Assembly: GCF_003399625.1 (NCBI RefSeq)
Contig: NZ_NBXA01000019.1
Span: 1 to 45,698, forward strand
Direction of reading: 5' to 3'
Origin: Subtercola boreus
GTDB lineage: Bacteria > Actinomycetota > Actinomycetes > Actinomycetales > Microbacteriaceae
Length of the DNA stretch: 45,698 bases
Numbering within the stretch: position 1 is the first letter of the stretch; every line of letters starts with the position of its first letter. The notes under the pieces are model-generated. The model was not told the DNA's origin. It saw only the letters and a list, made by a program, of their open reading frames with translations, and made no database searches. The position numbers and the translations under genes were made by a program. Below are positions 28,218 to 33,259 of the stretch, piece after piece.

Positions 28218-29237
28218 CTACTGCACTGACCAGCCGCCGTCCGACGGCAGCACGACGCCGTTGATGTTGACGGCATCGTCGCTCAACAGGAAGGTGATGG
28301 AGGCGGCCAGCTGCTCGGCGGTCGCAACCGTCGGGATCTGCGCCTGGAAGGGGGAGAGCCGCGCCTTTCCGGCTTCGGAGACGTTCGGTGGGAACGGGAT
28401 ACCCGTGGCCACGCCGCCCGGAGCGACCGCATTCACGCGGATACCCTGCAGACCGTACATGAAGGCGGCGCTGCGGGTCAGGCCGATCACGCCGTGCTTC
28501 GAGACCGTGTACGCATTGCCCGAGGCGTCGCCGCGGAGACCTGCCTCCGAGGCGACGTTCACGACCGAACCGCTTCCGGCAGCGAGCATCGCCGGCAGCA
28601 CGGCGCGCATGAGCTTGAAGCCGCCGGTGAGGTTGATCGCGATGACCCGATCCCAGACCGCATCGCTGGTCTCGTGCGCCGGCGAGAAGTCGTCGTTGAT
28701 GCCGGCGACGTTGGCGAGGGCGTGGATCGACGGACCCGCGGCGGCGGTGATGGCATCGATGTCGGCCTGCTGGGTGATGTCACCGGCGACGGTCACGATC
28801 TCGGCGCCGGGAACAAGGCCGGCCAGGTCGGCCAGGCGTTCCGCGGAGATGTCGACGGCGATCACGCGGCCGCCTTCCCTGGCGACGCGGAGGGCGGTGG
28901 CCCGGCCGATGCCGGAGGCGGCGCCCGTCACGATGACCGTCTGCCCGGCGAACCGACCGGTCGTGACGCGTTCCTGCCAGCCCGTCGGCTCCGCAGACCC
29001 GTCGGGGACGACTCCGCCGTTCACCTGCAGCACGAGGGCATCCACGGCCTCCTGGGGGAGCTGGCCCTGGCTCAGCACGACCAGTTGCTGCAGGGGGAGG
29101 CCGAGTACCGGGGTCAGGCTGCTGGCGTCGAAGCCGCCGCCGGCGCCGAGCAGGGCGGTGATGGCGGGGCCGCCCACCGGGTGATCCAGCCACGTTCCGA
29201 TCGGACTGTTCGCAGTCAGGGGGGTCTGGTCGGTCAT
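28218..29237 (-). CDS. Short-chain dehydrogenase/reductase with an N-terminal extension
   Basis: 339 residues. A classical SDR domain starts at about residue 98: TGAASGIGRATALRVA cofactor motif, NVAGIN, active-site Ser in NVASEAG and the Y-x-x-x-K in NAYTVSKHG. Ahead of it is a ~95-residue extension (NSPIGTWLDHPVGGPAITAL, then LPLQQLVVLSQGQLPQEAVD) not usual in SDRs; its role is unknown, perhaps a small alpha-helical substrate or dimer domain. AAGGAG precedes ATG 29237. A 25-base perfect palindrome lies 47 bases upstream, indicating tight repression by a TetR-type protein. Confidence 0.8.
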   Translation of the reverse strand: MTDQTPLTANSPIGTWLDHPVGGPAITALLGAGGGFDASSLTPVLGLPLQQLVVLSQGQLPQEAVDALVLQVNGGVVPDGSAEPTGWQERVTTGRFAGQTVIVTGAASGIGRATALRVAREGGRVIAVDISAERLADLAGLVPGAEIVTVAGDITQQADIDAITAAAGPSIHALANVAGINDDFSPAHETSDAVWDRVIAINLTGGFKLMRAVLPAMLAAGSGSVVNVASEAGLRGDASGNAYTVSKHGVIGLTRSAAFMYGLQGIRVNAVAPGGVATGIPFPPNVSEAGKARLSPFQAQIPTVATAEQLAASITFLLSDDAVNINGVVLPSDGGWSVQ

Positions 29238-29283
29238 GATTCGCTCCTTCTCGGGTGGGGGAGCCCCGTCTTTCGCCAGGGCA

Positions 29284-29308
29284 GGGGTGTCAACTAAGTT
29301 GACACCCC
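29284..29308. promoter_or_regulatory. 25-base perfect palindromic operator upstream of the SDR gene
   Basis: Arms GGGGTGTCAAC and GTTGACACCCC around TAA. Length and symmetry suit a TetR-type repressor. Each arm contains a TTGACA or its complement, so the site could also overlay -35 elements for either the SDR gene (leftward) or the fbiC-like gene (rightward, start 81 bases away). Confidence 0.7.
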
Positions 29309-29388
29309 TCATCCTAGGTCGCCGGGAGCGGATGAGGGGGATGGCGTCCCCGCTTCGGGAAAGCTCGGGGGAGCTAGCATGGAGCGAG

Positions 29389-31779
29389 ATGTCACCCTCT
29401 TCCGCCCCACCCGCATCCGCCCCGTCGATCGAGCGGTCACTCGCCCTCAGCGCGTCGGGGGGAACGCTCAGCGCAGAGGCAGCCGAGGCCCTGCTGCACG
29501 CGCGCGGCGCCGAGCTCGACGCACTGCTCGCCGAGGCCGGCCGGCTGCGTGACCTCGGGCTCGAGCGCGCGGGCCGCCCCGGCGTCATCACGTACTCCCG
29601 CAAGGTCTTCATCCCGCTCACCCATCTCTGCCAGGACCGCTGCCACTACTGCGTGTTCGTGCAGTCGCCGGGCAAGCTGGAGCGTGCGGGGATCGCGCCC
29701 TTCCTTTCGGCAGACGATGTGCTCGAGATCGCCCGGCAGGGCGCCGCGCTCGGCTGCAAGGAGGCCCTCTTCACGCTCGGCGACCGCCCCGAGAACCGCT
29801 GGGCCGCGGCGCGCGACTGGCTCGACGAGCACGGCTACGAGTCGACGATCGACTACATGCGGGCGATGTCGCAGCTGGTGCTGGAGGAGACCGGGCTGCT
29901 GCCGCACCTGAATCCGGGCGTCATGACGTACGCCGAGCTGGAGTCGCTGAAGGCCGTTGCCCCATCGATGGGCATGATGCTCGAGACCACTGCGACGAGG
30001 CTCTGGGCCGACAGGGGGGAGGCGCACTTCGGCTCGCCCGACAAGGATCCGGCGGTGCGCCTGCGGGTGCTCGACGACGCAGGCCTGCTGAAGATCCCGT
30101 TCACGACCGGGGTGCTGTTCGGCATCGGGGAGAACACCGCCGAACGGGTCGATGCGATGTTCGCCATCCGGGCATCCGCAGAGCTCCACGGGCACGTGCA
30201 GGAGACCATCGTGCAGAACTTCCGAGCGAAGGACTCGACGGCGATGATGTCGACGGGCGACCTGGCGACCGACGAGTACGCGGCGGCCGTCGCCGTGACG
30301 CGGCTGGTGCTCGGCCCGGATGCCCGGCTGCAGGCCCCGCCGAACCTCACCGATGCGGCAGAACTGGCGCTGCTCATCCGCGCCGGCATCGACGACTGGG
30401 GTGGGGTGAGCCCGCTCACGCCCGACCATGTGAACCCCGAGCGGCCCTGGCCGCAGATCGACGAGCTCGCCAGGCTGACGGCGGCGGGTGGCTACACGCT
30501 TCGGGAGCGGCTGACGGCGCATCCGCACTACATCCGTGAGGGTGCGCCCTGGATCGACGATGCCGTGCTGCCGGCGGTGCGCGCCCTCGCCGATTCGCGG
30601 GGCCTTGCCCGTGAGGAGGGTCTGCCGGTGGCGCCGCCGGCGACCGCGACGCGCTCGCGCTCCGCTCGCGCACTGCCGTTCCCCGCGCCCCACGCGGCGG
30701 TGCGTTCGGTGGTGTCCCTGGCGCTCGAGCGGGCGGAACGCTCGCCCGGCACGCTCAGCGATGGCGACTACGCGGCGCTCCTGCGGGCTTCGGGCGCCGA
30801 GCTCGACGCGCTCACGGGCCTGGCCGACGACCTCCGCCGTGCCCGCTTCGGGAACACCCTGTCGTTCGTGGTGAACCGCAACCTCGACTCGTCGCTCGTT
30901 CGTTCGGGAGCTGACAGAACGTCCCCGACCCTGGGTCTCGACGACTTCGCCGACCTGGCCGACGAGGCACGGATGCTCGGGGCGACCGAGATCTGCATGC
31001 AGGGTGCCGCGCATCCGGAGCTCGGGCCGTCGGGCTACGTCGACCTCGTACGCGCGGTGAAGGCCCGGCAGCCCGCTCTGCACCTGCACGCCTTCCGCCC
31101 CGCCGAGCTCGCCGACGGGGCGGCCCGCGCAGGCCTCGCGCTGCCCGACTTCCTCACCGCGCTCGCCGAAGCCGGAGTCGATTCCGTGCCCGGAACCGGT
31201 GCCCGCATCCTCGACGACACCGTGCGAGAGACGATGACCGGCGGCCGGGACCTCAGAGTCGCCGCGTGGCTCGGCATCGTCGAGGCGGCCCACCGCGCGG
31301 GCCTGGCCTCGACCGCCACGATGATCTACGGCCACATCGAGACCGCGCCTCAGATCGTCGCGCACCTCCGCACCCTCATCGCGCTGCAGGAGCGCACCGG
31401 CGGGTTCAGCGAGTTCATCCCGATGCCGTTCGTGCCGGCCGAGCATCCGTCCATGCCGCCGCATCTCGCCGGCCGCGGGCCGAATCTCCGGCGGTCCCGC
31501 GCCGTGCACGCGGTCAGCCGGCTCATGCTCGACGAGCACATCCCGCACCTCCAGTCGGCGTGGACGAAGCTCGGCCCGGCCGGCGCCCGCGCTGTTCTCG
31601 GAGGCGGCGCCGACGACCTCGGCGGAATCCTGCTCGACGGTTCGCTCCGACCGGATGCCGGGGCCGAGTCGGGCCGCCAGCTCACTCTCGACGAGGTGGC
31701 TGGTTTCGCCCGCGACCTCGGCCGGAGCGCCTGGCAGCGATCGACGCTCTACGATCCGATCGGGCCCGATGCGGGCTGA
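29389..31779 (+). CDS. FbiC-like CofG-CofH fusion with a degenerate CofH half
   Basis: 796 residues, the size of FbiC, the two-domain radical-SAM protein that makes the F0 chromophore of coenzyme F420. The CofG half is intact: C81-x3-C85-x2-C88 in LCQDRCHYCVF, then ALFTLGDRPENRW, IPFTTGVLFGIGE and VQNFRAK. The CofH half aligns along its length (VVNRN at 494-498, GATEICMQG, LHLHAFRPAEL, GTGARILDD, TMIYGH, GGFSEFIPMPF, RAVHAVSRLM), but where FbiC has C-x3-C-x2-C right after NRN-x-x-x-x-x this protein has R505, D509 and S512, and a loop of about ten residues is missing. No frameshift explains it. CofH chemistry should therefore be lost. ATG 29389 (GGAGCGAG upstream) is chosen by homology; the open frame runs further upstream. 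The next gene overlaps its end by 11 bases. Confidence 0.85.
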   Translation: MSPSSAPPASAPSIERSLALSASGGTLSAEAAEALLHARGAELDALLAEAGRLRDLGLERAGRPGVITYSRKVFIPLTHLCQDRCHYCVFVQSPGKLERAGIAPFLSADDVLEIARQGAALGCKEALFTLGDRPENRWAAARDWLDEHGYESTIDYMRAMSQLVLEETGLLPHLNPGVMTYAELESLKAVAPSMGMMLETTATRLWADRGEAHFGSPDKDPAVRLRVLDDAGLLKIPFTTGVLFGIGENTAERVDAMFAIRASAELHGHVQETIVQNFRAKDSTAMMSTGDLATDEYAAAVAVTRLVLGPDARLQAPPNLTDAAELALLIRAGIDDWGGVSPLTPDHVNPERPWPQIDELARLTAAGGYTLRERLTAHPHYIREGAPWIDDAVLPAVRALADSRGLAREEGLPVAPPATATRSRSARALPFPAPHAAVRSVVSLALERAERSPGTLSDGDYAALLRASGAELDALTGLADDLRRARFGNTLSFVVNRNLDSSLVRSGADRTSPTLGLDDFADLADEARMLGATEICMQGAAHPELGPSGYVDLVRAVKARQPALHLHAFRPAELADGAARAGLALPDFLTALAEAGVDSVPGTGARILDDTVRETMTGGRDLRVAAWLGIVEAAHRAGLASTATMIYGHIETAPQIVAHLRTLIALQERTGGFSEFIPMPFVPAEHPSMPPHLAGRGPNLRRSRAVHAVSRLMLDEHIPHLQSAWTKLGPAGARAVLGGGADDLGGILLDGSLRPDAGAESGRQLTLDEVAGFARDLGRSAWQRSTLYDPIGPDAG

Positions 31780-33259
31780 CGCTCGCGCACCTGCGACCGA
31801 GGCCGCCCCCGAACGCGTCGACGTGTTCATCGTCGGGGCCGGCTTCGCGGGCCTCGGCCTTGGCATCCGGCTCGCCCGCGAGACAGCGCACACCTTCGTC
31901 ATCGCCGAGAGATCCGACAGCGTGGGCGGAACCTGGCGAGACAACACCTACCCCGGTGTCGCCTGCGACATCCCCTCGCACCTCTACTCGTTCTCGTTCC
32001 GTCAGAAGCCCGACTGGTCGTCGGTGTTCGCCCCGGGGCCCGAGATCCGCGCCTACCTCGAGGAGTGCGCCCGCGAGGAGGGACTGCTGCCCCACCTCCG
32101 TCTCGGCTCCGAGCTCCTCCACGCGGAATGGAAAGGGGCCGACGGTCGGTGGCTGATCACCACGACCACCGGCCGGTACTCCGCCCGCGCTCTCGTCACC
32201 GCGGCCGGCCGACTCTCCGAACCGCGGATCCCCGCCACACCGGGTCTCGACACCTTCGAGGGCCCGCACTTCCACACCAGCCGGTGGAACCACGACGTCG
32301 ATCTGCGGGGCATGCGCGTCGGCATCACCGGCACCGGGGCATCCGCTGTGCAGGTGCTGCCCGCGCTCGCCGCCGAGGCCTCCGAGGTCGTCGTCTTCCA
32401 GCGGAGCGCCCCCTACGTGGTGCCGCGGGGCGATCGCCGTTACTCCGACGCCGAGAAGGCCCTCCTCGCGGGTGACCCGCAGCTGCTCGACGACTCCCGC
32501 AACGCGATCTTCTGGAAGGCCGAGCAGACGTTCCCCAGCCGCCTCGGCCGGCAACCGGACCTCGACGCCCAGCGCGCCCGCTGGCAGAACCACCTCGACG
32601 CGCAGGTCGACGATCCGGCCCTCCGCGAGGCGCTGACGCCCGACTACGAGATCGGCTGCAAACGCGTGCTGCTCTCCGACGACTACTACCCGACGCTCGC
32701 GCTGGCGAATGTGCACCTCGAGAACTCAGCACTCGCCTCCCTCGACGCCTCCCGGGCGACCGCCGCCAGTGGCCGCACCCACGACCTCGACGTGCTCATC
32801 TTCGCGACCGGTTTCCACTCCACGCGCCAGCCCTACGCCGAACGGATCGCCGGCCGCGCCGGAGAACTCCTCAGCGAACACTGGGCCGACGGGATGACCG
32901 CCTACGCCTCCACGGTCGTGCACGGCTTTCCGAACCTGTTCATCATCGACGGCCCGAATGCGAGCCTCGGCCACAACTCGGCGATCCACATGATCGAGAC
33001 GCAGCTCGAGTACGTCCTCGGTGCGCTGGAACACCTGGCCGGGCATCCGGATGCCGCACTCGAGGTCAGCGCCGAGGCCGAGGTTGCCTACACCGCCGAC
33101 ATCGATGCCGCCGCGGCGCAGACGGTCTGGCTCACCGGCGGCTGCCGCAGCTGGTATGTCGACGACCGCAGCCACCGCCTGACCCTGCTCTGGCCGGGGT
33201 ACGCGCACACCTTCCGCGAGAGGAACGGGCGGTTCGACGCGCGGCCGTTCGGCGTCTGA
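31769..33259 (+). CDS. Flavin-containing monooxygenase, Baeyer-Villiger type
   Basis: 496 residues from ATG 31769, which lies inside the last codons of the fbiC-like gene. FAD site GAGFAG at 24-29, the BVMO/FMO fingerprint F-x-G-x3-H-x3-W as FEGPHFHTSRW at 163-173, NADPH site GTGASA at 188-193, and ATGFHS near the C-terminal third. The family inserts oxygen next to ketones or oxidises N/S atoms with FAD and NADPH. Coupling to an F0-synthase-like gene suggests a link to flavin or deazaflavin chemistry, but that is inference; the substrate is unknown. Convergent with the AI-2E-type gene 8 bases away. Confidence 0.8.
   Translation: MRADARAPATEAAPERVDVFIVGAGFAGLGLGIRLARETAHTFVIAERSDSVGGTWRDNTYPGVACDIPSHLYSFSFRQKPDWSSVFAPGPEIRAYLEECAREEGLLPHLRLGSELLHAEWKGADGRWLITTTTGRYSARALVTAAGRLSEPRIPATPGLDTFEGPHFHTSRWNHDVDLRGMRVGITGTGASAVQVLPALAAEASEVVVFQRSAPYVVPRGDRRYSDAEKALLAGDPQLLDDSRNAIFWKAEQTFPSRLGRQPDLDAQRARWQNHLDAQVDDPALREALTPDYEIGCKRVLLSDDYYPTLALANVHLENSALASLDASRATAASGRTHDLDVLIFATGFHSTRQPYAERIAGRAGELLSEHWADGMTAYASTVVHGFPNLFIIDGPNASLGHNSAIHMIETQLEYVLGALEHLAGHPDAALEVSAEAEVAYTADIDAAAAQTVWLTGGCRSWYVDDRSHRLTLLWPGYAHTFRERNGRFDARPFGV

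What the first reader, a model, noticed from the sequence alone, without database searches (positions are those of the whole stretch)
29389..31779. FbiC homologue whose CofH half has lost the radical-SAM cysteine motif
The protein aligns to FbiC over its whole length and keeps the CofG C-x3-C-x2-C (C81, C85, C88). At the matching place in the CofH half, right after VVNRN (494-498), the three cysteines are R505, D509 and S512 and a short loop is deleted, while flanking motifs (GATEICMQG, TMIYGH, GGFSEF) survive. A fused but dead CofH with a live CofG would not make F0 alone. It may be a new function of the CofG radical chemistry, a CofG that relies on a separate CofH, or a scaffold.
Basis: partly seen in the sequence, partly recalled or inferred. 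Interest (0 to 1): 0.8.

Follow-up and report, generated by a model that had tools for sequence, protein, structure and literature searches.

The report
Oxygen-using variant of cofactor F0 synthesis
In a group of actinobacteria, one of the two iron-sulphur radical steps that build the deazaflavin core of coenzyme F420 appears to have lost its iron-sulphur cluster and to be replaced by an oxygen-using flavin enzyme encoded next door, although this core was thought to be made everywhere by two radical enzymes.

Summary
The window (a Subtercola-like genome) encodes an FbiC with an intact CofG half and a CofH half whose cluster loop is gone. In 97 non-redundant homologues, 54 are cysteine-less and 43 normal, on opposite sides of one tree branch. 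Where CofG and CofH are separate genes, the BVMO stays beside the cysteine-less CofH. In one relative the pair sits in a cluster with fbiA, fbiB, cofC and fgd. All 20 such genomes in a 99-genome set carry fbiA and cofE, none has a second CofH, and none has a candidate deazaflavin importer found only in FbiC-less genomes. Best reading: BVMO plus cluster-less CofH replace the CofH step with O2 chemistry, plausibly via a 4-hydroxybenzyl ester releasing a quinone methide onto 5-amino-6-ribitylaminouracil; CofG then closes the ring to F0. Replacement about 0.7; this exact chemistry about 0.4. No biochemistry or structure supports it yet.

The parts
29389..31779 (+). FbiC-like protein: CofG half (about residues 60-405, radical-SAM cysteines C81/C85/C88 intact) fused to a cluster-less CofH half (about residues 440-796)
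30868..30936 (+). Site of the lost CofH cluster loop (VVNRN-LDSSLVRSGADRTSPTLG, residues 494-516): no cysteine, residues deleted relative to the live loop
   Evidence: place calculated from the start at 29389
31096..31098 (+). Codon of R570 (HAFRP), Arg in 54 of 54 cysteine-less rows, Ser in live CofH
   Evidence: place calculated from the start at 29389
31769..33259 (+). Partner, a type I Baeyer-Villiger-like monooxygenase; ATG at 31769 overlaps the fbiC stop (31777-31779); GGTWRDNTYPGVACD and FEGPHFHTSRWN motifs; R299 aligned to PAMO R337 (catalytic role of R337 recalled)

Best explanation
An F0 synthase variant with one radical step instead of two. The CofH barrel has lost its [4Fe-4S] loop and no longer does radical-SAM chemistry; its product is made with help from the adjacent flavin monooxygenase. 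Proposed steps: (1) tyrosine is transaminated to 4-hydroxyphenylpyruvate (inferred); (2) the BVMO, whose nearest solved relatives are steroid and phenylacetone monooxygenases, inserts oxygen next to the benzylic carbon with O2 and NADPH to give a 4-hydroxybenzyl (oxalyl) ester, as PAMO turns phenylacetone into benzyl acetate (inferred by analogy); (3) the ester loses its acid to give the p-quinone methide, which in the cluster-less CofH barrel alkylates C5 of 5-amino-6-ribitylaminouracil (inferred). This would give the normal CofH product with balanced redox, because the quinone methide is the 4-hydroxybenzyl radical less one electron and one proton; (4) the intact CofG half closes the ring to F0 (family knowledge); (5) FbiA, CofC and CofE make F420 (genes shown; cofC looked for only in G038). 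Shown here: loss of the cluster loop, a single split in the tree, complete linkage of the BVMO in the loci examined, persistence of the pair when CofG is split off, F420 context, no other CofH. About 0.7 for replacement of the CofH step; about 0.4 for this exact chemistry.
For: BVMO downstream on the same strand in 54 of 54 cysteine-less loci and in 0 of 43 live loci, of which 32 have at least 1.3 kb downstream. One branch separates the two kinds, SH-aLRT 100. Reverse search: of 29 further BVMO loci in the order, 26 have a CofH-like gene adjacent, and it is cysteine-less in all 26 genomes; of 13 new loci in the class-wide search, 7 are linked, all cysteine-less. Linked BVMOs (52 rows used) lie on one side of a branch against 19 unlinked ones, SH-aLRT 99. 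Split genes: CofG separate, cysteine-less CofH beside the BVMO in at least 11 genomes, and cofH*-bvmo-cofG in L210. G038 cluster: fbiC*-bvmo-fgd-fbiA-LLM on one strand with cofE and cofC converging on the other, all over their cut-offs; FGD also adjacent in G028, G039, G055 (coordinates). fbiA and cofE in 20 of 20 such genomes. No second CofH. Candidate importer in 0 of 20. Nearest PDB sequences are steroid and phenylacetone monooxygenases; PAMO makes benzyl acetate (PMC3404926, passages).
Against: No activity, product or structure is known; the structure tool was off. The cysteine-less CofH half evolves faster than live CofH (dN/dS 0.12-0.29 in 13 pairs against 0.05-0.20 in 9). BVMO divergence follows the CofG half at least as closely as the CofH half, so nothing there singles out CofH. 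G011, a same-genus genome without this pair, keeps fbiA and cofE with no importer found; 14 of 64 cofE genomes have neither FbiC nor the importer at the thresholds used, so tail genes alone do not prove an F0 source. 3 of 29 and 6 of 13 BVMO homologues are not near a CofH. An alpha/beta hydrolase lies between the genes in 15 of 54 loci, which could instead mean hydrolysis of an ester product. The BVMO substrate is guessed from relatives.
Confidence: 0.7

Rival explanations
1. The trio makes a different deazaflavin or related metabolite: the BVMO supplies an unusual benzyl donor or oxygenates the product, and CofG cyclises it, so the final cofactor is a modified F0/F420.
For: The CofH barrel has clade-fixed changes in conserved motifs (R570 54/54, E651 53/54, M679 53/54), which could mean a changed substrate. 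An alpha/beta hydrolase is present in 15 of 54 loci.
Against: fbiA and cofE are present in 20 of 20 genomes and, in the one cluster read in full, cofC and fgd too, over their cut-offs; the CofG half is nearly as conserved as in normal FbiC (147 against 155 columns at 98% or more).
Confidence: 0.15
2. F0 or F420 is salvaged from outside and the FbiC*/BVMO pair does something unrelated to F420.
For: Of 64 genomes with cofE, 33 have no FbiC, so salvage is probably common in this order.
Against: The binding protein of a BtuFCD-like importer found near F420 genes occurs (E below 1e-100) in 19 of 99 genomes, all FbiC-less, and in 0 of 20 cysteine-less and 0 of 10 live genomes. FbiC* and BVMO are in one cluster with fgd and fbiA in G038. 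Other kinds of importer were not looked for.
Confidence: 0.08
3. The CofG half performs both radical steps and the CofH half is only a docking barrel; the BVMO has a separate role.
For: All 97 aligned rows keep the CofG cysteines. One CofG-half position that is Asp in live rows (residue 151) is variable in the cysteine-less ones.
Against: It does not explain the 54/54 against 0/43 BVMO association, nor why a stand-alone cysteine-less CofH stays with the BVMO. Besides residue 151 and two N-terminal positions (16, 31) the CofG half shows no such clade-specific change at the threshold used.
Confidence: 0.04
4. A decaying pseudo-domain or assembly error.
For: The loop itself is highly variable in length.
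Against: 54 non-redundant loci from many genera with long open frames; dN/dS below 0.3 in 13 pairs; stand-alone genes.
Confidence: 0.02

Closest known systems
FbiC, bifunctional F0 synthase (CofG-CofH fusion; NCBIfam NF006687)
   Same: Whole-length homology, intact CofG radical-SAM motif, CofH barrel and C-terminal region, association with F420 genes
   Different: CofH cluster loop and its three cysteines absent; a BVMO downstream in every locus examined; S570R and other fixed changes
CofH, 5-amino-6-(D-ribitylamino)uracil--L-tyrosine 4-hydroxyphenyl transferase (TIGR03551)
   Same: Barrel with NRN, GATE-C-QG, PGT, YGH and TGGF motifs
   Different: Scores 337 bits against a cut-off of 374; no [4Fe-4S] motif, so no radical-SAM chemistry expected
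MqnE aminodeoxyfutalosine synthase (PDB 6xi9)
   Same: The one solved sequence that covers most of the CofH half at E up to 0.001
   Different: MqnE keeps its cluster cysteines (alignment) and serves menaquinone synthesis (recalled)
Phenylacetone and steroid Baeyer-Villiger monooxygenases (1w4x, 4ap3)
   Same: Nearest solved relatives of the partner (E about 1e-64 and 1e-71), both BVMO fingerprints, aligned Asp and Arg
   Different: Partner is about 50 residues shorter, its clade excludes the 19 unlinked homologues tested, and it sits with F0 synthesis genes; substrate unknown

Membership tests
FbiC / bifunctional F0 synthase | Full-length similarity to CofG-CofH fusion over the curated cut-off | tested here: met
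   NF006687 1019.8 against 1018 bits, only just
FbiC / bifunctional F0 synthase | CofG radical-SAM CxxxCxxC | tested here: met
   C81, C85, C88 invariant
FbiC / bifunctional F0 synthase | CofH radical-SAM CxxxCxxC (two radical-SAM sites) | tested here: not met
   Absent in the window and in 53 other rows of 97
CofH (TIGR03551) | Score over the equivalog-domain cut-off | tested here: not met
   337.2 against 374.1 bits
CofG (TIGR03550) | Score over the equivalog-domain cut-off | tested here: met
   464.3 against 213.35 bits
F0 synthase by function | Makes F0 from tyrosine and 5-amino-6-ribitylaminouracil | not testable with these tools
   Needs biochemistry; genome context only
Type I Baeyer-Villiger monooxygenase (31769-33259) | FxGxxxHxxxW(P/D) fingerprint (pattern recalled) | tested here: inconclusive
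   FxGxxxHxxxW found in 51 of 54 partners including the window; the last position is N in the window and varies (P, D, R, Q and others) in the rest
Type I Baeyer-Villiger monooxygenase (31769-33259) | Second fingerprint [A/G]GxWxxxx[F/Y]P[G/M]xxxD (pattern recalled) | tested here: met
   Searched as G[GAT]xWxxNxYPGxxxD: 51 of 54 partners including the window
Type I Baeyer-Villiger monooxygenase (31769-33259) | Oxygen insertion into a ketone | not testable with these tools
   Inferred from relatives only

The most novel reading that the evidence does not exclude
An aerobic route to the F420 core in which a Baeyer-Villiger monooxygenase and a radical-SAM barrel stripped of its iron-sulphur cluster jointly replace CofH: the flavoprotein makes a 4-hydroxybenzyl ester from a tyrosine-derived keto acid, the ester collapses to a quinone methide, and the former radical enzyme now works as a polar C-alkyltransferase on 5-amino-6-ribitylaminouracil.
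Probability: 0.4. Interest if true: 0.92.

Novelty: new variant of a known kind. Interest (0 to 1): 0.85.

Why it matters
A 2021 review states that in all studied F420 producers F0 is made by a universal mechanism with two SAM-radical domain enzymes, and that structures are missing, likely because these proteins are oxygen-sensitive (PMC8498797, passages). If this reading holds, one of the two steps is an exchangeable module with an oxygen-dependent counterpart. It would be a case of a radical-SAM fold that lost its cluster yet kept its place in a pathway, would correct annotation (the protein just passes NCBI's cut-off as a normal F0 synthase) and could help F0 production in aerobic hosts. 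It also suggests a testable split among F420-gene-bearing Micrococcales between makers, of both kinds, and likely importers.

Tried and rejected
Separate CofH elsewhere in the genome: none found. Frameshift or sequencing error: rejected by the same state in relatives. Fusion merely carrying a dead domain: disfavoured by stand-alone cysteine-less CofH genes next to the BVMO. F0 salvage: the one importer type tested is absent from these genomes; two of them (G028, G055) have only an ATPase-like hit of 36-37% near fbiA, with no binding protein or permease. The first PF01933 hit for fbiA was ambiguous, because 10 of 14 control genomes ring too, so TIGR01819 was used.

Literature: no description of this variant, or of a BVMO in F420 synthesis, was seen in the listings (one open-access library; titles and starts of abstracts only; two searches listed 20 of 21 and 10 of 84 papers). 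Passages of three papers were read; none was read whole.

A distance comparison over 51 loci shows the BVMO tracking both halves (r 0.74 with CofH, 0.78 with CofG; partial r 0.35 and 0.51). It does not favour a CofH-specific coupling over plain co-inheritance of the locus.

Rows dropped before counts: the 97-row set leaves out 9 near-duplicates, L002/L003 (same protein as L001), L030/L031/L033 (split CofG pieces, followed up later) and hits under 600 bits, among them L024, which is live. The 80 loci are the best of 146 found and near the query by design, so 54:43 is not a frequency in nature. One search used 32 of the 54 partner BVMOs, 13 of the 26 linked order-wide ones and the 7 linked class-wide ones, and left out L207-L209; 'unlinked' there rests on coordinates or on searched flanks. 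Of the 32 order-wide BVMO genomes two had no locus; G142 was seen later (L216), G374 has an FbiC-like gene 42 bases upstream whose cysteines were not examined. G075 is unresolved (fragments), and the short match of G067 (7e-6) was counted as no FbiC.

Full report
What is there. The open frame 29389-31779 (+) encodes a 796-residue protein that matches CofG-CofH fusion proteins over its length: NF006687 1019.8 bits against a cut-off of 1018, CofG TIGR03550 464 against 213, CofH TIGR03551 337 against 374. The CofG cysteines C81, C85 and C88 are intact. In the CofH half, the live loop [25 protein letters not shown] is replaced after VVNRN by LDSSLVRSGADRTSP. R505 and D509 fall in the first two cysteine columns; the third is a gap, so the loop is better called deleted.

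It is real and widespread. I took relatives from 99 genomes (32 matched) and 80 loci from the GTDB collection (the best 80 of 146 found). The nearest named relative is Subtercola boreus, 96%. In a 97-row non-redundant alignment all rows keep the CofG cysteines; 54 lack the CofH cysteines and 43 have them. The cysteine-less rows include Subtercola, Humibacter, Agreia, Herbiconiux, Curtobacterium, Frigoribacterium, Naasia, Amnibacterium, Promicromonospora, Sanguibacter, Cellulomonas, Nesterenkonia and Arthrobacter wenxiniae (names). With the loop columns left out, a tree of all 97 places the two kinds on either side of one branch (SH-aLRT 100): one change suffices, though the unrooted tree does not show its direction.

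It is not plain decay. Over 13 pairs of cysteine-less relatives, dN/dS is 0.03-0.16 for CofG, 0.12-0.29 for the CofH barrel without the loop, and 0.11-0.38 for the neighbour BVMO; in 9 live pairs CofH has 0.05-0.20. The barrel is thus constrained, but less than live CofH. It has 45 columns at 98% identity or more (live: 70) and fixed or nearly fixed changes: R570 (54 of 54; Ser in live), E651 (53 of 54; Asp), M679 (53 of 54; Leu), G751 (52 of 54; Glu).

The neighbour. The gene directly downstream in the window (ATG 31769, overlapping the fbiC stop at 31777-31779) is a flavin monooxygenase whose nearest solved relatives are steroid monooxygenase (4ap3) and phenylacetone monooxygenase (1w4x). 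Each of two BVMO patterns was found in 51 of 54 partners; of the six misses one (L018) is a truncated row and the others were not looked into. The last place of the first fingerprint (P/D in the recalled consensus) varies. R299 aligns with PAMO R337 and D67 with PAMO D66 (my count on the alignment), and both are invariant in the 37-row alignment; that these PAMO residues are catalytic is recalled. The BVMO follows the cysteine-less fbiC on the same strand in 54 of 54 loci, within about 1.2 kb, and is absent from all 43 live loci, 32 of which have at least 1.3 kb downstream and 41 at least 1.3 kb upstream. In 15 of the 54 an alpha/beta hydrolase lies between.

The reverse test. Starting from the BVMO, 32 of 396 genomes of the order matched at E 1e-140. 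Of the 29 loci other than the window's own, 26 have a CofH-like gene adjacent, and in all 26 genomes it is cysteine-less and carries the Arg and Glu named above. The other three (46-52% identity) have no FbiC-like match in the genome. In the class-wide search 17 of 394 genomes matched; of 13 new loci 7 are linked, all cysteine-less, 5 of them matching the HAFR-type pattern and 2 not resolved; 6 are not linked. Linked BVMOs fall on one side of a branch (52 rows against 19 unlinked, SH-aLRT 99).

Split genes. In two other families of the order CofG is a separate gene and the cysteine-less CofH stands alone beside the BVMO, in at least 11 genomes (for example L181 and L182). In G581, of the same class but not the same order, the order is cofH*-bvmo-cofG on one strand (L210). 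The constant pair is therefore cluster-less CofH plus BVMO.

F420 context. In G038 one strand reads fbiC*, BVMO, F420-dependent glucose-6-phosphate dehydrogenase (472.6 bits, cut-off 420), FbiA (347.7, cut-off 257), an LLM F420 oxidoreductase (377, cut-off 244), with CofE (226, cut-off 181) and CofC (122, cut-off 105) on the other strand, converging. FGD also lies next to the pair in G028, G039 and G055 (coordinates). The own genome has fbiA (322.6 bits with its neighbours in the frame) and cofE on contig C7, away from the window (C19), and an FGD over cut-off on C32. In the 99-genome set 20 genomes have the cysteine-less kind (17 fused, 3 split); all 20 have fbiA over cut-off and cofE. In the 17 fused ones the matches are pieces of one gene, so no other CofH-like place was found.

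Salvage as a rival. 33 of 64 cofE-bearing genomes have no FbiC. In one of them (G017) fbiA ends what looks like an operon of a BtuF/BtuC/BtuD-like importer. The importer lies within about 6 kb of fbiA, where the contig allows, in 10 of 22 FbiC-less genomes with fbiA, in 0 of 20 cysteine-less and 0 of 11 live or unresolved ones. A genome-wide search for its binding protein finds 19 genomes at E below 1e-100 (three more between 1e-50 and 1e-60), all FbiC-less; the 19 all have cofE; 0 of 20 cysteine-less and 0 of 10 live genomes are among them (chance of no overlap between importer and any FbiC 9e-8, between importer and the cysteine-less kind 1.6e-4, both ignoring relatedness). By this measure the cysteine-less genomes behave like F0 makers. 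Against this, 14 cofE genomes have neither, including the same-genus G011, which lacks both genes of the pair.

How it probably works. The known CofH reaction yields a p-hydroxybenzyl radical from tyrosine that adds to ribityldiaminouracil and is then oxidised by the cluster; CofG cyclises (PMC8498797 passages; PMC8210684 passages). A p-quinone methide is the same fragment less one electron and one proton, so its polar addition would give the same product without a radical. A BVMO could provide it: PAMO turns phenylacetone into benzyl acetate (PMC3404926 passages), and a 4-hydroxybenzyl ester should lose its acid readily (chemical knowledge, not tested). 4-Hydroxyphenylpyruvate or 4-hydroxyphenylacetaldehyde are the likely substrates. 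R570 may hold the acid group (speculation). Shown: the parts, their linkage and context. Inferred: substrate, ester, quinone methide, alkylation.

Verdict. Observation confirmed; interpretation partly supported. I saw no description of it in the listings of the library searched, which holds open papers only.

Noticed in passing
L193:2019-5848 (genome G017) and the fbiA neighbourhoods of FbiC-less genomes L224, L226, L228, L230-L234, L240: A BtuFCD-like ABC importer (binding protein, FecCD permease, ATPase) lies near fbiA in 10 of 22 FbiC-less genomes with fbiA and in none of 31 genomes with FbiC: a candidate F0/F420 uptake system. 19 of 99 genomes carry its binding protein at E below 1e-100; 7 of these have cofE but no fbiA match over cut-off, so some may import F420-0 or F420.
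   Followed up: partly
G011, G026, G037, G059, G060, G063, G069, G076, G091 and five more genomes: 14 of 64 cofE-bearing genomes have neither FbiC nor the importer's binding protein at E below 1e-100 (nine of them with fbiA over cut-off); their F0 source is unexplained. G059 has a more distant importer near fbiA (binding protein 44%) and G032 a partial binding-protein match.
   Followed up: no
L073:8304-9281, L075:8259-9236, L095:8070-9308 and others: An alpha/beta hydrolase gene lies between cysteine-less fbiC and the BVMO in 15 of 54 loci and near none of 43 live loci; it would fit an ester intermediate or its removal (three of the fifteen tested against Pfam).
   Followed up: partly
L049, L092, L097: Three records named Acidobacteria/Acidobacteriaceae carry the cysteine-less fbiC and group with Microbacteriaceae or Promicromonosporaceae in the trees; these bins are probably mislabelled.
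   Followed up: no
window 29236-31779: The fbiC* frame is open from an earlier ATG at 29236, overlapping the opposite SDR-type frame at 28218-29621; the start at 29389 is likelier but not proven.
   Followed up: no
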